Assembly (NCBI GenBank): GCA_009760855.2
Contig: WPIO01000028.1
Coordinates: 1,736,001 to 1,800,000 of the forward strand
Direction of reading: 5' to 3'
Length of the DNA: 64,000 bases
Source: Cristatella mucedo
Lineage: Eukaryota > Bryozoa > Phylactolaemata > Cristatellidae
The translations under genes were made by a program, and so were the position numbers. Below the pieces are notes generated by a model. The model saw only the letters and a program-made list of their open reading frames with translations. It searched no databases and was not told where the DNA came from. Shown here in pieces: positions 12,714 through 64,000 of this stretch. Numbering within the stretch: the stretch's first letter is position 1; every line of letters begins with the position of its first letter.

Positions 12714-25960
<13,247 letters not shown>

Positions 25961-38826: not shown

Positions 38827-41800
38827 TCACTTGATAAAGCGCCCTCAGAGAACTCAATCTCTCTCTAGGTGCTTTACATTTGCTTTAATGTGAAATGCAA
38901 TTGAATGGTAAGTAAGATCGTGCTTGAAAAACAAACGAGATGAATAATATGGTTACGGGTGACATGCACAGGGTCAGCATGCAAATGTGGTTGGTGGCAG
39001 CATGCACAGTGTCAGCACGCATAAGCACATCAAGGACGAATCACAGGGACCCACTAAATGCTGCCCTAAATAGGTGTGTTTCTAAGTTCCTTTTAAATGT
39101 GGTCAGGTCAGGGGATGTTTTGACGCAGGTCGGGAGGGAGTTCCAGGCTTTGGGAGCATATGAACTAAATGGGTGACCACTTTGGTATGCTGTGAGTTGC
39201 TGACAATCACTTGGAATTCCAGGCTGCAGATTCAGGCACGGTTCCTGCATAAATGCTGAAATCTAAAATCCATGCTTTTATCTGTTTGCAATGTCAGTGT
39301 GCTTCCAAATGTCACTGCCGACGGCAACACAGCTCATCCTGGGATGAGCAGCAATCAGCTGATCCTATGGCTCATTGTTCATACTCTCCATCCTTGCATC
39401 ATGGCCATCCTCGGGATACCTAATGATGGCCATGATGCAGAGGATGGGAAAGAAGGTTGAGGATAGTGAGGATGAGCTCATCCCCAAGCGTTACTGGGCG
39501 CACTAAGTAATATCCACAATCATATGTAGCATCTTCAAGCATCATTGAGTTAATCGATAACACCCAATGCGGGCTAGAGGATGATGACAGTTGGTTGGCC
39601 CTGGTCAACCCCATAATCCTAATTCGCATTATCATTCCGGCCAAGGTTTCTATGGTGGAGAATGCTACGGGGTGCTACGCATAAATCGTGTAATCATTCT
39701 GACCAAGACCTTCGTATGCATGAACTGCATCACTATCATCATTGTTCACGCGTATCATGGATTGGCCAGCTGCTTGCAGTGGGCCCTGGCCAGGGAAACC
39801 CGCTGTTATCATCCTCCCCCACGCATTGGGTGGTATCGAGTAAACCCAATGATGCTTAAGGATGCTACATATGATTGTGGGTATTATTTAGTATGCCCAA
39901 TAATGCTCGAGGATGTGTTCATCCTTACCATCCTCTGTATTTTTCGCATCCTCCCTTCTGTAGCCTTTGTATTGTGGCCATCCTTGGGTATCCCGCAGGT
40001 GGCCTTGATCTTCCCCATCCTTCCCAGCAATGCAGGCAACATGAATCACCCCGTGTGCGTAAAGAATATAGAGTATTAGTTATTTGGAATTAACTAGTAA
40101 GCGCAGGGATAGCGAAGGATCACGCCCAATAATACGTAGTACTCTTTGCTTAGAATTTACGAATAATTTGAGAGGATGGGGAATGATTACAGGCAACAGT
40201 ATCGAGCGAGAGAATGGGAAAGAAAGTATGTTGACCTGCAGCATCGTTGGAGTGTGTTTGCTGCGCTTCAGATACAGGCAAGTGTCATGTCTTCCCCACA
40301 TGAGCCAGTATATGATGCTAGCATTCATAGCAAGTTTGTGCAAGATCTACAATAGATGATGATGATAAGCAAGTTATATATTCTTAAGTCTCCTCCCATA
40401 AGTCTTTGCATGCTGCTGCCTGACTCCCTTTTACAGGATGTTGAGTCTATCGGCTTATTAAGCCATCCACCATAAATGCCTCTATGTAGGAATGTGTACA
40501 ACTTGTTGGCTGGTTTCTATGGATTTGCTTCACAACGTTAAGATGTCAGAGGTTTTCCTTTCTGCGACTGATGTTAGAGATTAAAAAAATACTAGCTGAT
40601 CGAACAGCCTCCTTTTGTATAGCGACAGAAGAACCTTTACGGCTATCACCACCGCTTGCAGTGGCGATAAAGGATCGCCCACCACAGGATTCGAACCCAC
40701 GACCTCGGGTCGGAGGTCGTGAAAAGCAACCGCCTTACCTAGTGAGCCATTACGACTCAGATTGCTTTGTAAATCTTGGCTATTCTGTTGGCATTTAAGG
40801 GGGGTCGACAAGAATCTCGTCTTAATTCTTCAAAGCTTAGGCATTCGATAAACCATTCCCACATTGCCTGCCACGATTCAGTGTGACCACTAAATTCACA
40901 ATTACTAGTATCACATTTTGTATTAGCTAGTATGGGGTTACCAACGGTGCTTCCTGACTTGTCAGTGGTAGACGTTAGGAATCCTGTAGACGTTAGGAAT
41001 CCTGTAGACGTGCGTGAATCCATGCCAGAAAGGTGTCAACTTAACATGACCAATGCTACGATGCATTCGACTGACTGAGATGGTGGAGGTTGCAGTTTTT
41101 CCATCCTCTGCCGGAATTAAAAAAAAGCCGGTACCAAGGATGCCTCCCCCAAAGCTGTGCCGATTCAGCTTAAAATTGTACTGACGTCTGCATATAGCGA
41201 TTTTTGGCTTGCTGTATTTTAATACTAAATTTGAAATTTGATAGATCAGTCAATCGCTACCACACCGAGTGTGTGGCAGTACAGCTGGATCCTTCTGGCC
41301 CAGCATTTACCGGCCGATGTGACCCAGCTTTTACGAATGTTTATAATAATATGATGGGTCTAAATAGATTGTTATGTTTTAGTGCATATTGGAGCATCTC
41401 ATTTTGAAATAGATCGGTATAAGTACTTGATCCTAGTCGGTAAGCAATAAAAATCTCCCCTTATTTTGGATAGATCTGTGCAACCACTTTCTCGAGTTAG
41501 ACACAAAAGAGCATATCGCATAGTTTCAGAGCTACCAATAGCCTAGACCCTTCAATGCGAATTTATGGAAAGTAGTCTTTTCTGAGATTAAAACAACCTT
41601 CACAAGAGAAGTTTGTAATGTACTTGTATAGCAACACCAAGAGAACTCAATCTCTTTCTAGGCACTTTACATTTTACACTACTATCGTTTTTTCACCCAC
41701 TTATGACCGTTGGGGAGAGTATAAAAAGTCATTTTGTTTTCTCGGTACTTTTCGGGAGCTTATCGTACTCCCAGTCGTTGATTGTCGTGATGGAAAGAAT

Positions 41801-44593: not shown

Positions 44594-47500
44594 TCACCGG
44601 AGCCACAGCTTCAGTCTGAATGCATCGACGCCATTCAGATAGTACTTGAGCAGCCTTTTGTCTCGCACGAAGCCTAGATTTTCGTACAGCATCAGAGCGG
44701 CCTTGTTCGTAACCTCTGTTTCGAGAACAACCTGCAGTATAATAAAGCAGTGATGCCAAAAGGCTACCCACACATTCCGTCGAATTGGGCGTTAGCTGTG
44801 GTGGCAGGCCAGAGAGAGTGCACGGCAGAGTGAGAGAAAGAGCAGCAGCAGCAGAGAGCAGATGCAGCTTGCTGTCTCTAGCTGAGAACAAAAAACTTGA
44901 CAGTCGTGGAAAGAGCGATAGCAGGCAGCCGGGTGCGCCAAGCTCGTACACCAGGTGGTGGCTCTTTTAAATTCTACTGCCACACTTACCTCTTCGCATT
45001 CCTGTGCAATCATTGCATCTACAGCTACTTGCACCAGCTTAGATCCTGGAAAGAAATACCAGGGAAGGCTACGGGCCAAGCAAAAATCGATGCCTCGCAG
45101 AGCGCGCACGGCAGAAGCAAGCCACCGCTGTAGGAATCGCTCAGCCAGCTCGGTCACGTGCTATTGGGGCCCGACTCGGTGCCGGAATCACAGCAGAATC
45201 AGCTGCTCACCCATTTTCTTGCGCCTGTACTTCTCGTCGACGGCGAGCATAGCTATGTAGCCACGCTTGATAAGCCGCTTGTGAAGGTCCAGCTTGCAGA
45301 CTATTGCACCGACGTACTGGCCCTCGTGGACGGCCTGCAAAGGAGCCGTAGCGCTAGCAGTAGAGGAAGAGGCAGACCCAGCAGAGAAGGACGCGGACAA
45401 CAGGATGGCGACGTCCTGCTCAAGGAGCAAGGATCTCTTCCTCATTAGTAATAATAATAGCAATACATTGGTATAGCAACCTCGGAGAACTTAATCTCTT
45501 TCTAAGCACTTTACATTTGCTGCCAAGGAAGCACGATCGAATGGTTAGCGATAGCGTGCTCAATAAACAAGAATAACATGGTTGGGGTGACATGCACAAG
45601 GTCAGCATGCAAGTTTGGTTAGTGACAGCATGCACAGTGTCAGCATGCATGAGCACTATGCAAGGCTGCCCATCAGCCCCCTCCCCCCAGTGCCTCTGCA
45701 AGAGGCACTGGCAGGCCCCGGGCAGAAACGTTGAAATGGAGCTGGCCGGCATACCCACCCAAAATGAGTGAGATGCTAAGTGCAAAGGCACGACTTAACT
45801 CATTGCTTGCTGGGGCATGGCAAGTACTGAGCCGAAAGGTTCACCTGATGAACTGACATGCAAAACCTGTTTTTTGTGAATTAATTGATAAGGGACAAGA
45901 TATTTATCAATTACTATATGTTTGCATAGATATTTTAAGACTTCTTATTTATTAACATTATTCGAACTATTCACTGTGATGCAGCCTTAACGGAGGTACA
46001 GCAGAAAGGGATCAACAGGCATTTACATCTGCACACTACGCAGTAATAATAATCATAATATACTTGATAAAGTAACAGCCAGGCATCCCCCACAGGCACA
46101 AGGCATAGCCAGCCATCGGGGGGGGGGAGGGGGTTGATCGCGACTAGCGATGCTGATTTCCCTCCTCAACTACAGTATGTTGCAGGGACAGACATGACGT
46201 GACAGTCCGTGCAGTTATTGAAGACAGGTTCGACTGTCTACATAGTCATCTGTCTGGCACAGGATGGTAATAAACCAAGCATCGTTCGATGCACAAGTTC
46301 GATCAATAAAAATAAAGGCTGCCAAGGCCTTGGCTTGACCCCATCACTAATGCAGGGACATTTAAAGTGAATGTAGAGATTGGCTAATTCAGTACAGTAG
46401 CCTCATTTACAAGGCATCGAAAGGGCATCAGCGGCTTTAACCGGCTTGTAACAAGAAAGAAGGAATTGCCAGCCGCATGACTCGAACCAGCGATCCGGGC
46501 CGTGAGATGCTAGCTCCTTGCTCAGGGGAAACAAACAGGTGTACTCACTATTCATATGACCACTTGCAAGTATTTGTTTAACAAATGTCCCAACACTTGC
46601 ATGAAACTGATAATTACTGTTTCAAAATGCCTACCTACACACTTAAAAAATACAAGCTGATTCGACAGCCTCTATTGTATAGCGACAGAAGAGCCATTAC
46701 GACAGCGGTTCTCAACCAGTGGGTGGCAACCCCTTTGGGGGTCGAATGACCCTTTCACAGGCGGTCGCCGCAGACCACCACAAAACGTATTTCCACACTT
46801 TGCACAGAATAATTTTATGATTGGGGGTCGCCATAACATGAACTGTGTTAAAGGGTCGCAGCATTAGGAAAGTTGAGAACCGCTGTATTAGGAAGGTTGA
46901 GAACTGCCCTAGACGCTTGTAGTCATCATCGTCAGATAGAATGACTCACAGCACCACTTACACAAGACCAAACCCCCCTTTTCAGCCAGTCTCAGTAACG
47001 AAGACAACGTGGCTACACACATATGCAGAGGACAGACCCGGCTGCTAAGACAGTTGCTTTCGAACCTAGCTGAACTGCTGCATCAGTTTCAGCCTGTTCG
47101 CGCCCTCAGGTCATGTGTGGACAATAAATTAGCTGTCCGATTCCTCTGCTTAAAGACAGTTGGCAACAGAAGCTTTAGCTCTGCAGGTCCTAGACTGTGG
47201 AACTCGCTTCCACAATTCTTATGCAACGACAACTACTCTCCTACTGCCGACTATGGCACATCCTTTTCAACGGTCCTGAGCTGCTACTTCTATGCAACTC
47301 ATTACCTCAACTTCTCTCCTCACTCTTGCTATGCTTCCCACTTTCTCTTTGTTGTGTGAGACGAAGTCTGTTGGCTACCGAATGTGTACCGAAAGCTGCT
47401 TAGGCTGTGAGTGCGCTATACAAATCTCTCCTGCGTAACACCCACATGGTCTTTATGACTTTGTGGAGTTACAGACGGAGATACATTACATTTGTTAAGC

Positions 47501-48255
47501 GGGCAACAGTGTAATCCTGATCGAGGCCGATGCGATCACCTACAAGTGGCACGATAAGGGGCAACCGGAAAGCCGCTCCTTGCCGGCTAGCGCAAGGCAG
47601 AAGTATAAACTTATTGACATCAGCCACTGTCATAGCAGGCAGCCACCTATCCTCACACTTAATGGGAGAAGGCATAAAACCAATATCAGACAGATCACTG
47701 GAGGCAGGGCGCCCCAGGAGGCAAGAGTCATACACGAGCACGGGAGCAGGATGAGCACTAGGGAGCCAGCCATGCAACCACACAGAGCTGCAGGAGGCAG
47801 AAACGATCTTACAGAACTGATGGCTACCAAGCAAACACCACAAGAGGATGCTACAGCTGCAGGCTCTGTTCACAGAGATTTACTGGAAGCACCAGTGATC
47901 CAAAGTATTATAGCAATAAAACAGCTGTATAGCACGATCTCTTTCTGGGCACTCTGCATGAACTGAAAAGGAAGCTCGTCACTGATTAGGTAAAGGTTGC
48001 AAAATGTCAGCACGCGGGGCACATGTAAGTACAAAGAACACACGGATGGGTAAAATCCAGCAGGGAACAGGTGGAATTTTGCTACTTTTTAAATGTTGCC
48101 AAGTCAGGGGTTGTCGTCATGTTTAGTCGGAAGTGATTTCTCTGGGCCTTGGGAGCGTAGGAACTGATGGCCCGAGGCACTGCCATAGGCTTGAGACAAG
48201 AGGAGATGGCAATGAGATGAGAAGCCCAGGAAGTAAGTATTTCAGATAGCTATTC

Positions 48256-48300
<45 letters not shown>

Positions 48301-50755
48301 AATAAGTGAGTAGCAGGACCAATCAAATCGACGATCTGCTGGTACAAACAGTGGAATGCATGACAGGCCTAGCTGCAGAGTCAGGCACGCATAGCAAGCA
48401 CATTGTTTCGCAGTAGGAAGGCCTGAATTTAGTGAGTTACAGCCGTCTAAAGGGGGTGTCACATATGCACGACCAACATGGCTGTGCTATCTCAGCACAC
48501 CTGAATTCGAGTGATGCTACTAGGGCCGAAAGTAAGCAAACTTGAATTCGAGCCAACACTTGTCATCTATCAAAAGGTCCTTTTGTAATTGGACACCTGG
48601 GTTCCATGGAGAGGCTACAATGTATATACAGGCCGAACCGATTTGTGTGTCAGCCTTTCCTGTTTCGGAGTGACGCTAAGTTACCCATAATCACTAGTGC
48701 TATTTAGGACAAATTGTGGCTTATGCTCAGCTTCTATGAAGGAATAATTAATTGCCAACAGCCTCTCAGATAAAAGCTCCTACAGACAGCCAGCCAGCAC
48801 TTGCTGGCTGGCTGTCGTACTGCCAGGCCTCGGAAAGCTTACATGTGCAAATATGTGTGTGCAAGCGCCTAGAAAGAGATTGAGTTCTCTGAGGGTGCTT
48901 TATCAAGTGCATTATTATTATCTTCAACCATAACTCTGCATAACCAGGAAACCATGCAGGTGTTAAATCTGGAAAGTTTTCTATACTGCACATTGTGTCT
49001 AAGCGGCTCTAGGTGTGCATGCGGTAGGCAAACAAATAAACTTCACCACATGCAGAACAGAAAAGTTAGAAGCACAACTGAGCCAAGAATTTCAGGGAGT
49101 GGGTAGGTAGCCTAGGCGTAGCAGCATTAGACGGCTGCAGATGTGCGCAACCATCGACAGCAAGTGACAACGACGTCGTCGTTGTATTGTGGCAGTGAGT
49201 GTCACAGCCAAGGACCTGCAGAGCAAAAGCTTCTGTCACAAGTAGTCTCCGAGCTATAAGTAAAAGAAAGGGACAGCTAACGTCTTTAACTGAGAGTGAG
49301 GTAGAGAGAGAGAGAGAAGCAACGGCAAACTAACCGGGCTGCGACGGAATGGGCGATGCCCGGCAGTAGAAGACTCCTGCGGCTGATCCTAGATCATTTG
49401 ACCGACAATGTAAGCGAGAAGAGGAAAGAGTAAGAGTTTGCTGACCGTCAGGTGTGTGAAGACAAGGGGGACGGAGCAATGACACAACTCGTGCTCTCGA
49501 CTAACACAGCAGCTGTCACAGAACAGCTCTTGCAGGCACTCAGTAGCCATGTCATCCGGTCACAGAGTCCGACCACACCGTGAGAAGCATAAACCACTCG
49601 GTAATTAGACACTGTAACACATATAAACTGCCTGGACTCGCGGGTGATGATGACAAGGTCTGAAGGACAGACAGGCATACATCCACCTACTTATGAGAAA
49701 CAACCTACGAGTATGTCAATCACTGTAGATATGCACTGGTGTTAAGCCCACTATGTGAACGGAAAATCCCAGTGGCCAGCGTTCCTGGGGTTACGAAGTG
49801 GAAGCTTGGGCAGAGATTGTGAGCTGTAGGGGTCACGAGGTGTGCTTTGACGTGAAAGTGACAAGGCACAATGTTACAGCCAACATGGTAGTCCAACCCA
49901 TACTGACAGGACAGGCTGGTGTTAGTAAACTACCCAATTTTCAGGCTAACAATCTAGCAGATGCGAGTCGGCACACTACATCATGGAGAGTCGACACAAG
50001 TAAAAATGACTGAGCATGAATAATAATATCACATATTGCGAGCAAGCCACCACTATGGACAAATAGTTCATAATTGACTACCTACTGAAATTGCTTGAAG
50101 ATAGTAGCTAGTCAACACTCCTACAAAGAATGGGTCGAATTCCACACTAACTACGCACAGCAGGGGGGGGGGAGCATAACCAGTTTCTGCACATTGCCCA
50201 TGAGCAAAATTTAGGCAGCTCACTTACCAGAAAACATAGATGAGGCCAGTTGTGTATGAAGTAACGGTATGTGTATATCGAATACGGCTCCGAGAGGTCC
50301 CTGGAGATCAACCGCATGATGTCGGCCATTTGCTCTTCAGATCGGTAAACCTCAAATACGATACCGTATTCATCTGGTATACCCAACGTTACTGGCTCGA
50401 ATTCGGGCATTATTTTACACGGCTCCTCTTTAGGATTTAAGACTCTAGAAGGTAAAACTGAAATAACAGAGTCATTTTCGTCACAATGACAGTGACCATT
50501 TTCGCACGACGAGCCACCAGACTTGCCAGCGGTCAGGCTCGCAAGATCCTGTGCAAGGCTATTAATCGAAGGCTCGCACGACACTCGATGAGATCGCGAG
50601 CCACCAGCCGATTTGCTGTCAGAGCAGTGGTCTGAGTCGCAGCATCGTCCTGCAGTTCCGGCGGGTCTGTGCTTCAGCCCTGGTCCTGGCATATGCTCCT
50701 TCAGTACATTATGATCGGTGCAAAACGGAGACCGGCAATCGTGTGTGTGACTCAT
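44594..50755 (-). CDS. NAA30: N-alpha-acetyltransferase 30, NatC catalytic subunit
   Basis: NAA30 transfers acetyl from acetyl-CoA to N-terminal Met followed by a bulky hydrophobic residue, as part of cytosolic NatC with NAA35 and NAA38. Exons on the minus strand are 50755-50228, 45334-45211, 45045-44990 and 44731-44594 (TGA). GT/AG borders and phases agree, giving 281 codons. Residues 1 to about 125 are a Cys/His/Ser-rich, probably disordered N-terminus. The GNAT fold follows, with [19 protein letters not shown] (substrate side), [24 protein letters not shown] and the C-terminal [20 protein letters not shown]. The acetyl-CoA loop reads RRKKMG (213-218), with Lys where the family has Gly. Human NAA30 is longer, mainly at the N-terminus. 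The 4.9-kb first intron carries the SPIN-like MITE. The gene converges on YIF1. Confidence 0.93.
45443..45655 (-). mobile_element. LINE-B 3' UTR fragment
   Basis: AATAATAATAG is followed by the inverted hairpin and the LINE-B 3' UTR up to GCATGCACAGTGTCAGCATG. It lies in NAA30 intron 1, starting about 110 bp from exon 2. Confidence 0.85.
46388..46530 (-). mobile_element. tRNA-derived SINE relic
   Basis: The minus strand carries a clear B box, GCTGGTTCGAGTC, an A-box-like TGAGCAAGGAGCTAGC, and a body ending near AAATGAGGCTAC. It resembles SINE-1 in layout but is diverged, so it may be a third family or an old SINE-1. Confidence 0.5.
46645..46702 (-). mobile_element. SINE-1 3' part, interrupted by the SPIN-like MITE
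   Basis: CAAGCTGATTCGACAGCCTC and TATAGCGACAGAAGAGCC are the inverted 3' end of SINE-1. The match ends at 46702, exactly where the MITE begins. The remainder of the SINE was not found beyond 46906. Confidence 0.7.
46703..46906. mobile_element. SPIN-like hAT MITE
   Basis: The element starts CAGCGGTTCTCAACC and its inverted end, GGTTGAGAACCGCTG with one mismatch, closes at 46885, giving 183 bp. Internal blocks CCCCTTTGGGGGTCGAA, ACCCTTTCACAGG, AATAATTTTATGATTGGGGG and TTAAAGGGTCGCAGCATTAGG match my recollection of the SPIN family of hAT transposons in block content and order. Flanking octamers CATTACGA and TATTAGGA agree at six of eight positions. A second, partial copy of the terminal 20 bp follows to 46906. 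No transposase is encoded. Family assignment rests on memory, not on a search. Confidence 0.8.
47064..47494 (+). mobile_element. LINE-A C-terminal part and 3' end
   Basis: The open frame keeps [20 protein letters not shown] and [20 protein letters not shown], ending near HFLFVV. The LINE-A 3' UTR (GTAACACCCACATGGTC, GTGGAGTTACAGACGGAG) and an ACATTACATT tail follow. It is 5'-truncated, and lies in NAA30 intron 1. Confidence 0.87.
47900..47962 (-). repeat. Degenerate LINE-type 3' tail
   Basis: ATAGCAATAAAACAGC then ACGATCTCTTTCTGGGCACT: only part of the inverted hairpin is left. Confidence 0.45.
48055..48465 (-). mobile_element. LINE-B C-terminal relic with internal GA run
   Basis: On the minus strand, a GLPTAKQ...LTLQLGL block (matching [20 protein letters not shown]) lies at about 48340-48430. 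The ISSYAPKA...TPDLATFKK block lies at about 48060-48160. A 41-bp GA run (48258-48298) sits between them, where the element normally reads CTATCTCTCAGATATAC. Confidence 0.75.
48258..48298. repeat. (GA)n microsatellite, about 41 bp
   Basis: A perfect GA run located inside a LINE-B relic at a short CT-rich motif. It lies in NAA30 intron 1. Confidence 0.95.
48861..48921 (+). repeat. LINE-B-type 3' tail fragment
   Basis: GCAAGCGCCTAGAAAGAGATT with its hairpin partner and GTGCATTATTATTAT: a complete tail with nothing else of the element. NAA30 intron 1. Confidence 0.8.
48930..50145. other. NAA30 intron 1, nothing recognised
   Basis: No mobile-element block was recognised apart from a short GA stretch at about 49300-49317. 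An open frame at 49798-50013 shows no domain. Confidence 0.35.
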
Positions 50756-52889: not shown

Positions 52890-53094
52890 TACTACTTGTG
52901 GCTCCCACTTGACATCATTGATCTTCGCAGAGAACTCAGTCTAATGTGGCTAGTCTAGGCAGTAACAGTGAGCTGTCAGTGATACCTGCTGTCCCAAAGG
53001 CAGAGATAGCAGAAAAACTTGGTTAAACTGCCTTGACGACCTTTAGTGAATGCCACCAGTTTGTAGTCTCCAAAGGCCTCCCAGCAGAACACGG

Positions 53095-54763
53095 CCTCAG
53101 GTCATGTCCCAGCACCTTTCAAAAAAGCTGTAGTCAGGCCACTTCTCAAGAAAGCAACACTAAACCAAGAGAACTTAAGCAACTACCGCCCAGTCTTCAT
53201 TCTACCATTCCTATTAAAGACGCTGGAACGGGTCGTGGCAGACCAGCTGAACTCCTATATCGAAACCTCACATCTTGCTAGTAAGTTCCAGTCTGGCTTT
53301 AGAGCTAATCACTCCACAGAGTCAGCATTGCTTCGGGTATACAACGACCTACTTAGGAATGCAGACATGGGTAGAGTGTCTCTGCTTGTTTTGCTCCATC
53401 TTTCGGCAGCTTTTGATGCTATCGATCACAAAGTTCTTCTAGAGCGCCTCTCATCTCGCCTGGGCATCACTGGCACTGCTCTGCAGTAGTTCAGGTCCTA
53501 TCTCAGTGGGAGACTCCAGAGTATTGACGTGAATGGACAAAGATAATCTGAATTACCTCTGAAATATGGAGTACCTCAGGGCTCCGTGCTAGGTCCGGTT
53601 CCTTTCACGGTTTATACTCTCCCTCTTGCTGATGTGATTGCCAAGCACAATCTAGGCTTTCACTTCTATTCGGATGACACTCAGTTGTACCTTTGCTTTG
53701 ATCCCTCCCAGCCTTCGAGCACCTCAAATTCTCTAAATTCACTAGCTGCATGCATTGATGACATCCGCACATGGATGGCAGCAAATTTTCTAGAACTTAA
53801 CGATGATAAAACCAACTTACTAGTTATGGTCAAACCCATTGTGATCCAGAGATTGAAAATGCTGACTCTCAAAATTGGCTCTGCCAGCATATCTCCAGTT
53901 GAATCAGCTCGAAATCTAGGTGTCATATTCCAAAGCGAGCTCTCGTTAGACGACCATATCAGCGCCACAGTCAAATCTGCCTATTTTCAGGTTCATAACA
54001 TTGCTAGAATTCGGGCTTGTTTAGATAAGGATACCACATCTAAATTGGTCCATGCATTCGTGACATCTCGTCTCGACTTCTGAAACTCACTGCTTACTGG
54101 CCTACCAGCATGTGCGATCAGGCGATTGCAGCTGGTGCAAAACTCTGCAGCTAGGCTTGTCTGTCGTGAGCCTCGCAGTTGCCACATTACTCCACTTCTC
54201 GCCGACCTGCACTGGCTACCAGTCACGCAACGGATTGACTTCAAGGTTTTGTCGCTCACCTTTAGGTCCCTTCATTCTATGGCTCCAGCCTATCTGTCAG
54301 ATATACTACCCCATCAGGCCAAGCATCGTACCACCCGCTTTTCGGAATCCAACAGTCTACAAATACCTTGTATAATCCTTAAATCCTTTGGAGACCGTGC
54401 GTTTAGTTCGCATGCTCCCAAAGCCTGGAACTCCCTCCCGACCAGCGTCAGAACATCCCCTGACCTGACCACATTTAAAAGGAACTTAGAAACACACCTA
54501 TTTAGGGCAGCATTTAGTGGGTCCCTGTGATTCGTCCTTGATGTGCTTATGCGTGCTGACACTGTGCATGCTGCCACTAACCACATTTGCATGGTGACCG
54601 TGTGCATGTCACCCCTAACCATGTTATTAATTTTGAAAGTTTTTCAAGCATGATTTTACCTGCCATTCAATTGCATGTCCCTTTGCAGCAAATTTAAAGC
54701 GCCTAGAAAGAGATTAAGTTCTCTGAGGGCGCTTTATCAAGTGCATTATTATTAACATTATTA
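53095..54763 (+). mobile_element. LINE-B reference copy, RT to 3' end
   Basis: An L2/CR1-type non-LTR retrotransposon, 5'-truncated at the start of the RT. One reading frame runs from FKKAVVRPLLKKA near 53125 to the natural TGA at 54528. It is broken only by TAG at 53487, TAA at 53544 and TGA at 54081. RT motifs include NYRP, FQSGFRANHSTESALLRV, LSAAFDAIDH, GVPQGSVLGP and FHFYSDD, where Ser replaces the usual Ala of YADD. The C-terminal domain ends KTHLFRxAFSGSL-like. A 230-bp 3' UTR, a GCGCC...GGCGC hairpin and ATT repeats close the element. The endonuclease is absent. Confidence 0.95.
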
Positions 54764-61034: not shown

Positions 61035-64000
61035 TTACTAAAGTCCTCTGGACATGTAATGTAATGTATCTCCGTCAGTAACTCCACAAAGTCATAAAGA
61101 CTATATGGGTGTTACTCAGAAGAGTTTCGTATAGCGAACTCACAGCCTATGCGGCTTTCGGTACGCATTCGGTAGCCAACAGACTTCGTCTCACCCAACA
61201 AAGAGAAAGTGGGAAGCATTGCAGAGTCAGGAGAGCAGTTGAGGTAGCATGGAAGTAGCAGCTCAGGACCGCTGAAAAGGATGAGCCATAGCCGGCAGTA
61301 GGAGAGTAGTTGTCGTCGCGTAAGAACTGTGGAAGCGAGTTCCACAGTCTAGGACCTGCAGAGCTAAAGCTTCTGTCGCCAACGGTCTTTAAGCTGAGGA
61401 ATGGAACAGCTAATTTATTGTCCAAACATGACCTGAGGGGGCGAACAGGCTGAAACTGATGCAGCAGTTCAGCTAGGTACGAAGGAGCCAAGTCATGGCG
61501 GGCCTTGGTGGTCAGCCTAAGAACTTTGCTCTGTATTCGTTGCTCAACCGGCATCCATCCTAGCTCTTTTAGCAAAGGAGATACGTGCTTAGATGCTAGG
61601 ATTTGAAGACTAGCCTGGTAGCCATTTTCATAGTGTGCTGCAGTGGCCTAATAGCTTTCTTTGGCAGCCCAGCCAAAAGGGAATTACAATAATCAAGTCA
61701 AGACAGAACTAAGGAGCTAGTTTAATTTTTTACAAGCCTTTGTGGGAGACAGCTCTTAATCTTGGAAAGGAATCGGACGTGATGGCTAGCTGTAGCAGCA
61801 GTCTTCTGAATGAAGCTTTTAAAATTGAGGCAGCTGTCGAAAACGACACCTAAATTTCGAGCACGCGGTGATGGTCGCATAATAGCATCACCTATTAGAA
61901 GAGCAAAGCCTTTTAATCCAGCCACACGCTTAGGGTGTCCTATGAGCAGCAGTTCGGTTTTATCATCATTTAATTTCAGGAAGTTTTCCGACATCCAGGA
62001 TCGAATATCGGCAAGGCAAGCATTCAGTTTCTCAGTTGCCACAGCAGATTCCGAAGGTTTGAATGACAAATACAACTGAGTATCGTCAGCATAGAAGTGA
62101 TATCCTATTCCATGGGCCTTAATCACTTTTCCCAGAGGTTGTGTATAAATAAAGAACAGCAAGGGACCGAATACAGACCCTTGAGAGACTCCACAGGTGA
62201 CCCTTCTCGTGTGTGTAAACTGACCCCCATACGACACGGATTGAAAACGATCAGACAAATATGACTTAAACCACGCCAGTGCTTCGTCTGCCAGACCGAT
62301 CGTTGTTCTCAATCGTTCAAGCAGAACTTCGTGATCAATGGTGTCGAAGGCAGCAGACAGATCTATCAGAGCTAGGCAGACATTCCCGTCGTCGTTGCCA
62401 CGAAGAATGTCATTGTTGACACGGAGGAGAGCAATTTCAGTAGAGTGCTGCCTCTTGAACCCAGATTGAAATGTTTCTGACATTCTATTATTTTCAATAT
62501 GTTCAACCAGCTGCCTAGCAACAATTTTTTCCAGAATATTTGATAACAATGGAAGAAGGGAAACTAGGCGATAGTTTGCTAGGAACTCTGTGTCTAATTC
62601 AGGCTTTTTAAGAATCGGTCTAACGATTGCCGATTTGAAGGACTTGGGGACGACCCCCAAAGAAGCATTAAAAATCTTGGTTATGGCAGGGCTAAGTTGG
62701 TCTGCCAGTGAAGGCCACAGAGATGAAGGTATAGGGTCTTCTGGAGACAAGCTCTTTTTGCTTGACCTTATAAAGGTAGCCACATCGCATGCAGAAACCT
62801 CAGAAAACCTTTTAAGGAAGGTCACAGGTTGTGATACCATAATTGCTTTAGTCGGGGGGGGGGGGCTTTAAGGAGGCACGAATGTGCACAATTGTTTCAG
62901 TAAAGAAGACTGAAAACTTTTCGTCTGAGCCCTTATACCTGGGAAATCAGACCTCTCAGCATTGGCCGGCAAAATGTGTGCTGTCTTATAAATCTGTTTA
63001 GGGTCCAACTAGCAGGAATTCAGCTTTCGGATGAAAGAAGAATCACTGGCTTTTTTAAGCTTCCGGGTGTAAACTCGAAGGAAGTCTTTGAAATTGACTA
63101 GATCTGCATCTGATCCAGATTTCTTGAAACGACGTGCAAGCCTACGCTTAATCCGACGCATCTTTTGAAGCTTTTTTGTAAATTGAAAGGAATCTCTACG
63201 ACTTTGAACACGGATAGAATGAACGGGAGCATCCTTGTCAAGAGCACTCCTGAGTGTCATGTTCACTGCATCAGTGAGGGTATCGAGGCTTCCGGTCGAG
63301 TCTGAATGCAGATCAAGGAGACCTGTACGACTAATTTAAACAGATTTAAAAAAATGTTTCTATGTCAAAGCTTTGTAAGCTACGGCGCTTGACAAGTTCG
63401 ACACTACCCTGTACGTACAAGGGAGCAGGATCAGTAAACGGACCGAACAATGATCTGAGGGGGTCAGTGGGTACACCTCAAGGTCAGTGGGGAGGACATC
63501 CTTAGTGAACGCGAGATCTAGAATATGGCCACCGACGTGGGTGGTGGGATTAACGTGCTGGACCTAACCAAAATTTTCCAGACAGTCAAGAAATGAGCGG
63601 ACCTGGCTGTTGATAGGGTTGTCAACGTGAATATTTAAGTCTCCAGCCATCAGTAATGGCCTGTCACATACCAACATTTTTGCGAGGAACTCTGAAAACT
63701 CTTTTATATACAAGTTTAGACAGCCAGAAGGAGGCCGGTATATCACAACAGTGAGAGGCATTGTCTTTGACGAAGACCTGATTGCAATCAATTCAAGCGA
63801 TGGCCCATGTAAACAACTGAAATCTTATAGCCAAACGACTCGCGAACAATTGCAACCTCGCCACTAACCTTGTCAGAACGCATGGACTGATAGAATGAGG
63901 ACCCGGGTTGAGTGGTCTCAGATATATAGCTACTGGAACAAAGCGTCATCCAAGTTTCAGTAACCAGAAATGCATCCAGCTTCTGCTGGCCCACCTGATC
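61035..64000 (-). mobile_element. LINE-A reference copy: endonuclease, RT, C-terminus
   Basis: An L2/CR1-type non-LTR retrotransposon, cut by the right window edge. In its own order: apurinic-type endonuclease pieces at 63994-63788 (DAFLVTETWM) and 63791-63564 (VIYRPPSG, AGDLNIHVD); a basic linker at 63266-63009; an intact 372-codon RT frame at 62840-61722 (NYRLVSLLPLL, FQSGFKRQHSTEIALLRV, LSAAFDTIDHEVLLERL, GVSQGSVFGPLLF, YHFYADDTQLYLSF). The C-terminal domain is at 61575-61147 ([16 protein letters not shown]). The RT shares its frame with the linker and the second endonuclease piece. The first endonuclease piece and the C-terminal domain are frameshifted, and a TAA ends the RT at 61721. It is inactive. 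The 3' end has an ACATTACATT tail. Confidence 0.95.

What the first reader, a model, noticed from the sequence alone, without database searches (positions are those of the whole stretch)
46703..46906. SPIN-like hAT MITE in an invertebrate-looking genome
Inverted ends (CAGCGGTTCTCAACC) and several internal blocks are shared, in order, with SPIN transposons as I remember them. SPIN is a hAT family noted for repeated horizontal transfer among distantly related animals, including tetrapods and some invertebrates. The copy is short, non-autonomous and only mildly diverged. It interrupts a SINE-1, which dates it as younger than that SINE.
Basis: partly seen in the sequence, partly recalled or inferred. 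Interest (0 to 1): 0.75.

Follow-up and report, generated by a model that had tools for sequence, protein, structure and literature searches.

The report
SPIN transposon fragment in an invertebrate genome
This is a short, non-coding copy of what looks like SPIN, a jumping gene known for crossing between distant animals; the host genome holds hundreds of copies and a dead full-length relative, so it is a solid further host example of a known phenomenon, next to an earlier report from a freshwater snail.

Summary
The finding holds in substance. Window 46703-46885 is a 183-bp non-autonomous hAT element with 15-bp inverted ends (14 of 15 complementary). It belongs to a large family in the same 572-Mb genome: 521 places match the family's 42-bp 5' end at up to 3 mismatches (reversed-pattern control 0). 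Of 39 other copies examined, 25 have 8-bp flanking duplications with at most one mismatch, centred on TA as in the Buster/SPIN branch. In a protein search with its translated frames the organism-named hits were Myotis myotis and Gekko kuhli. A decayed 2,956-bp element with both ends and Buster-like transposase remains is the likely autonomous relative. The copy lies in an NAA30 intron, so contamination is unlikely. Two corrections: the reported 204 bp are composite, since 46886-46906 is an extra 3' terminus found nowhere else by pattern; and the SINE it supposedly interrupts does not resume on the right. A SPIN-like hAT is already reported from Biomphalaria. Known kind, probably a further host.

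The parts
46703..46885 (+). SPIN-type hAT MITE, 183 bp
   Evidence: 164 of 188 alignment columns identical to the 187-bp host family consensus; family of 39 fetched copies
46703..46717 (+). 5' terminal inverted repeat CAGCGGTTCTCAACC
46871..46885 (+). 3' terminal inverted repeat (family end), one mismatch to the 5' one
   Evidence: copies end here
46695..46702 (+). left target-site candidate CATTACGA (TA-centred)
   Evidence: 6 of 8 identical to 46886-46893; re-paired flanks reach 6/8 in about 8% of cases, so weak on its own
46886..46893 (+). right target-site candidate TATTAGGA, also the first 8 bases of the second 3' terminus
   Evidence: sequence; target-matrix score
46886..46906 (+). second, solitary 3' terminus (TATTAGGAAGGTTGAGAACTG), probably from another copy of the family
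   Evidence: 18 of 18 core bases identical to the family consensus, then a 3-base gap before the final ACTG; double end unique in the genome
46907..46914 (+). CCCTAGAC, target-site-like 8-mer directly after the second terminus
   Evidence: scores in the top 0.24% of window 8-mers on the family's target matrix, best of 14 registers looked at
46645..46701 (-). fragment of a tRNA-type SINE, cut off at the MITE
   Evidence: 86% identical to 40584-40641 and similar to 17742-17796
44597..50755 (-). NAA30-like host gene; exon matches at 50755 to about 50228, 45334-45197 and 44734-44597; the MITE lies in the intron after the first of them
   Evidence: tblastn of P0121 and Patella NAA30 to the window; exon ends set by eye

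Best explanation
A non-autonomous SPIN element (hAT superfamily, Buster branch). It keeps about 93 bp of the 5' end and 81 bp of the 3' end of SPIN around a 13-bp junction and encodes nothing. It was moved by cut-and-paste by the transposase of a full-length SPIN once active in this genome, inserting at 8-bp TA-centred sites that were duplicated. SPIN most likely entered the host lineage by horizontal transfer, multiplied to some 500 copies or more, and died: only broken transposase remains were found. At this locus the copy sits in an NAA30 intron, abutting the solitary 3' end of a second copy. My preferred local history is insertion at a TA-centred site plus a deletion joining SINE and second MITE at a short ATTA-type match; the order is not resolved. 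Shown: family, ends, target duplications, related empty sites, broken relative, host integration. Inferred: trans-mobilisation, horizontal entry, local order.
For: 521 places with the 42-bp 5' end at up to 3 mismatches, control 0. 25 of 39 copies with 8-bp duplications at up to 1 mismatch, against a mean of 1.1 and maximum of 6 in 2,000 re-pairings; in their left copies T4 in 24/25 and A5 in 25/25; TcBuster is reported as nnnTAnnn (PMC3499496, passages). Joined flanks of 7 of 39 copies align across the junction to MITE-free repeats of the window, L037 most clearly. Consensus against recalled SPIN ends 91/93 and 80/81. Translated frames: 28/28 residues shared with Myotis myotis P0244 (5' end, 84 bp) and 26/27 with Gekko kuhli P0245 (3' end). 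A 2,956-bp relic at G000:C676:10562050-10565005 carries the same ends (84/95 and 72/81 columns) around transposase-like pieces. A probe from it finds 6 places, 4 at 64% or more including itself, all six with open frames of only 44-192 residues.
Against: No SPIN reference library was available; the reference ends are recalled. The relic's flanking 8-mers do not match (GGTCAGTG/CTCTAGCA); of 7 of its pieces given to Pfam, none reached a cut-off (PF05699 E 0.043, PF18658 E 0.13; two unrelated families at E 0.013-0.015 score better). No other animal genome could be searched, so horizontal entry against an older shared origin was not tested. The focal copy's own duplication is only 6/8, and 14 of 39 other copies lack a duplication at up to 1 mismatch. 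Several unnamed database peptides carry diverged versions of the 3' end, so that end alone is not diagnostic. The LINE's organism-named relatives in the listed 120 are bony fish, apart from three rows labelled as bacteria, so 'invertebrate' rests on NAA30.
Confidence: 0.87

Rival explanations
1. A different hAT-Buster/Charlie-type family that shares only end sequences with SPIN.
For: SPIN-like 3' ends occur in diverged form in unnamed database peptides; the genome holds other hAT families.
Against: Similarity covers about 174 of 187 bp including the non-TIR subterminal parts (recalled reference); Myotis peptides match both ends and a Gekko peptide the 3' end; the full-length relic continues past the MITE breakpoint with further SPIN-like sequence (compared with recall only).
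Confidence: 0.09
2. Old vertically inherited hAT family of animals rather than horizontal transfer.
For: No other animal genome could be searched; the transposase relics are much decayed.
Against: Near-identity of non-coding ends to bat and gecko peptides, with the fetched MITE copies only about 5% from their consensus, is hard to reconcile with a protostome-vertebrate split.
Confidence: 0.08
3. The double 3' end is a simple 24-bp tandem duplication of the MITE's own terminus, and CCCTAGAC is its true right target site.
For: Exact 24-bp spacing, 88% identity between the units; CCCTAGAC fits the target matrix.
Against: The extra unit's core equals the family consensus in 18/18 bases, where the focal copy's own end differs by one, a small difference; the left flank CATTACGA agrees with CCCTAGAC in only 3 of 8 positions but with TATTAGGA in 6 of 8 (sequence); it does not explain the missing SINE part.
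Confidence: 0.3
4. Contamination of the assembly by vertebrate DNA.
For: Organism-named relatives of the peptides are vertebrates.
Against: The copy lies between NAA30 exons, beside host SINE/LINE copies, and 521 places carry the family end, the listed ones spread over many contigs.
Confidence: 0.01

Closest known systems
SPIN (SPACE INVADERS) non-autonomous elements of tetrapods and Rhodnius (SPIN_NA)
   Same: Ends of about 93 bp (5') and 81 bp (3') (against recall; Myotis and Gekko peptides); 8-bp TA-centred target sites
   Different: Own internal junction and 187-bp consensus length (compared with recall only); host is a protostome-like animal; fetched copies about 5% from their consensus
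SPIN-like hAT of Biomphalaria glabrata (about 1,000 copies; PMC5440852, passage read)
   Same: SPIN-related hAT with hundreds of copies; that paper found no intact DNA-transposon transposase, and I found no intact SPIN-type one here
   Different: Its sequence could not be compared here, so shared or separate origin is open
TcBuster (PMC3499496, passages read)
   Same: Buster branch, 8-bp nnnTAnnn target sites
   Different: Autonomous and active insect element; sequence not compared
OposCharlie1/OC1 (PMC3621081 and PMC11614815, passages read)
   Same: Another horizontally transferred transposon with an overlapping host list
   Different: Different family; sequence not compared

Membership tests
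hAT superfamily | Short terminal inverted repeats beginning CAG | tested here: met
hAT superfamily | 8-bp target-site duplications | tested here: met
   25 of 39 copies at up to 1 mismatch; 29 of 39 at 6/8 or better; focal copy itself only 6/8
Buster/SPIN branch | TA-centred target sites (nnnTAnnn) | tested here: met
   T4 24/25, A5 25/25 in left copies; reference from PMC3499496 passage
SPIN | Whole-length nucleotide match of the ends to SPIN consensus | tested here: inconclusive
   91/93 and 80/81 against recalled letters; no Dfam/Repbase at hand; peptide matches to Myotis and Gekko support it
SPIN | Autonomous partner with Buster-type transposase bearing the same ends | tested here: inconclusive
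   A broken 2,956-bp relic has both ends, but its transposase is typed by eye and by a recalled probe; Pfam hits are below cut-off
SPIN | Horizontal transfer (divergence lower than host genes) | not testable with these tools
   no other animal genome could be searched
MITE | Short, non-coding, high copy number, internal deletion derivative | tested here: met
   183-bp copy of a 187-bp consensus, 521 places with the 5' end, ends shared with the relic

The most novel reading that the evidence does not exclude
SPIN entered this animal's lineage in a transfer separate from those known in pulmonate snails and triatomine bugs, amplified a MITE subfamily of its own, and went extinct, leaving a datable series of copies and full-length relics that would add an independent point to the SPIN transfer map.
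Probability: 0.35. Interest if true: 0.5.

Novelty: new member of a known kind. Interest (0 to 1): 0.35.

Why it matters
SPIN is a standard case of transposons crossing phyla, and each further invertebrate host with datable copies and full-length relics helps to show when and between whom transfer took place. The focal locus also shows how two copies can be spliced into one false-looking repeat, a trap for annotation.

Tried and rejected
Exact-pattern scans for SPIN end blocks in viral contigs and genome contigs (14, 26), and blastn against phages and plasmids: no match. The abundant recent hAT (63 places with domain scores of 69 bits or more, 16 of them with open frames of 635-642 residues) was considered as the helper: none of its 30 fetched loci shows a SPIN end at up to 2 mismatches in the 3,237 bp held. 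These stretches may stop short of the element's far end, so this is strong for the near end only; I set it aside by eye as an Ac/ZBED-like family (two frames read). Twenty weaker PF05699 loci of the 138 matches, with about 3.5 kb on each side, also lack SPIN ends. L099, the best probe hit, has a similar transposase end but no convincing SPIN terminus within about 500 bp. The recalled probe matches nothing in solved structures. Self-insertion as a recurrent habit was rejected: the double end is unique and 0 of 78 flanks (about 200 bp each) of the 39 copies hold another MITE piece. String search of papers for the end sequence listed nothing relevant. A mollusc-marker search (PF14830) did not complete.

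Not-held papers: 10.1038/nature08939, PMC2579371 and PMC3350315; their content is known to me only by recall or through other papers' passages.

Changed after checking against the calls: the inverted ends are 14 of 15, not perfect; the 'autonomous partner' row went from met to inconclusive; identity and row counts for searches were made exact.

Full report
What is there. The window holds CAGCGGTTCTCAACC at 46703-46717 and its complement, with one mismatch, at 46871-46885; a perfect 15-nt inverted repeat lies one base outward. Chance gives fewer such matches. No second copy was found in the 64 kb. The host assembly became searchable: 572,011,866 bases in 688 contigs, the window being C210:1736001-1800000. 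Of 1,596 first-look candidates 40 were scored and all 40 matched; one is the window copy. I fetched the other 39 with flanks.

Family anatomy. The 39 copies are 183-192 bp long in my end calls and end where the inner right repeat ends. Their majority consensus is 187 bp. The focal copy differs from it at 19 of 182 compared positions (12 transitions, 7 transversions); without CpG sites its K2P is 0.093, against a median of 0.050 (0.031-0.086) for the others. The others were chosen by similarity to the focal copy and made the consensus, so their spread is not a fair sample. The 42-bp 5' end of the consensus occurs at 521 places (268 and 253 on the two strands) with up to 3 mismatches, 0 for the reversed pattern.

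Target sites. 25 of 39 copies have 8-bp flanking repeats with at most one mismatch, against a mean of 1.1 and a maximum of 6 in 2,000 re-pairings; 29 of 39 reach 6/8 against a mean of 3.3 and a maximum of 10. In the left copies of the 25, position 4 is T in 24 and position 5 is A in 25. TcBuster is described as producing nnnTAnnn duplications, and SPIN is placed with it in the Buster family (PMC3499496, passages). For 7 of 39 copies the joined flanks align across the junction to repeats in the window that lack the MITE; L037, inside a LINE tail, is the cleanest, and others such as L019 and L013 are looser.

Is it SPIN? No transposon library was at hand. I recalled the SPIN ends before building the host consensus, though no call records that order; the comparison, run after the consensus, gives 91 of 93 and 80 of 81 identical positions. 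Because the reference is recalled, I sought outside evidence: two translated frames of the consensus were joined into a 99-residue query and run against the protein database. 15 of 23 candidates passed; 3 of the 15 carry organism names, two Myotis myotis and one Gekko kuhli. P0244 from Myotis has the same 28 residues at the 5' end, P0242 from Myotis a close match at the 3' end, and P0245 from Gekko 26 of 27 residues at the 3' end. That SPIN colonised many squamates is in a passage of PMC11008031; that bats carry the transposons shared with Rhodnius, SPIN among them, is in passages of PMC11614815; that Myotis is a SPIN host I recall. Several unnamed hits show diverged versions of the 3' end, so that end is shared by related hAT families.

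The autonomous partner. PF05699 gave 138 matches among 150 scored of 766 candidates, led by a recent hAT with 16 open frames of 635-642 residues and no SPIN end in the 3,237 bp held of 30 loci; 20 weaker loci also lack SPIN ends. Near the second best, on C676, the broken transposase end is followed by the MITE's 3' end, and the 5' end lies upstream. The whole is 2,956 bp with many stops; its ends match the consensus at 84 of 95 and 72 of 81 columns. Its flanking 8-mers do not match each other. Of 7 pieces given to Pfam none reached a cut-off, so the transposase label rests on sequence motifs as I know them. A probe from its own 87-residue piece finds 6 places (150 of 186 candidates scored), 4 at 64% or better including itself; the open frames there are 44-192 residues, and the two weakest (43-45%) have no stop inside. 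I found no intact SPIN-type transposase; the search is not exhaustive.

The locus. The MITE lies in an intron of an NAA30-like gene on the minus strand, after its first matched exon. Left of it is the tail part of a minus-strand tRNA-type SINE; other SINE copies continue past the break point, but the continuation is absent on the right. Right of the family end stands a second terminus, 46886-46906, whose core is identical to the family consensus in 18 of 18 bases, followed by CCCTAGAC, in the top 0.24% of window 8-mers on the target matrix, the best of 14 registers inspected. The left flank CATTACGA scores less well (top 3.2%); CATTAGGA, inside the family's own 3' end, is itself target-like (top 0.6%). 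The double end occurs once in the genome, and none of 78 flanks of other copies holds another MITE piece. So the given 204 bp join one nearly whole MITE and 21 bp that are probably the end of another. Two deletion histories, or a plain tandem duplication, remain possible; the relative age of MITE and SINE is therefore not proven.

Host. Among the 120 listed NAA30 relatives (of 1,995), 22 carry organism names: 10 molluscs, 11 arthropods and 1 mammal; the best match, 82% identical, is unnamed. Among the 120 listed LINE relatives (of 3,832), the organism-named ones are bony fish at 43-53% identity, apart from three rows labelled Vibrio or Enterobacter; unnamed ones reach 67%. I take the host as a protostome, perhaps a mollusc, without proof.

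Known or new. A hAT with about 1,000 copies and significant identity to SPIN is reported for Biomphalaria glabrata (PMC5440852, passage); SPIN is reported in Rhodnius (PMC11614815, passages); hAT transfer between Lymnaea and vertebrates is cited in PMC4344730 (passage). This is a further host of a known kind unless the window is from one of those species, which I could not exclude. Whether its arrival was a separate transfer is open.

Noticed in passing
G000, e.g. L054, L062: A different hAT family with 63 places scoring 69 bits or more for PF05699 and 16 open frames of 635-642 residues, no SPIN ends seen: very recent, possibly still active.
   Followed up: partly
window 44597-50755 (-): NAA30-like gene with at least three matched exons; the intron after the first holds SINE and LINE pieces and the MITE.
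   Followed up: partly
window 23000-23821 (-): Open frame with about eight 30-bp tandem repeats ([10 protein letters not shown]), by eye resembling the N-terminal part of peflin; no Pfam hit.
   Followed up: no
window 40584-40760 and 17624-17796: tRNA-type SINE family with several copies in the window, the best pairs 83-87% alike.
   Followed up: partly
window 61722-62867 (-) and 53067-54530 (+): Non-LTR retrotransposon reverse transcriptase frames; organism-named relatives of the first are nearly all bony fish.
   Followed up: partly
G000, rows at about 41-45% identity: A second, abundant Buster-like hAT group with open frames up to 563 residues, not examined.
   Followed up: no
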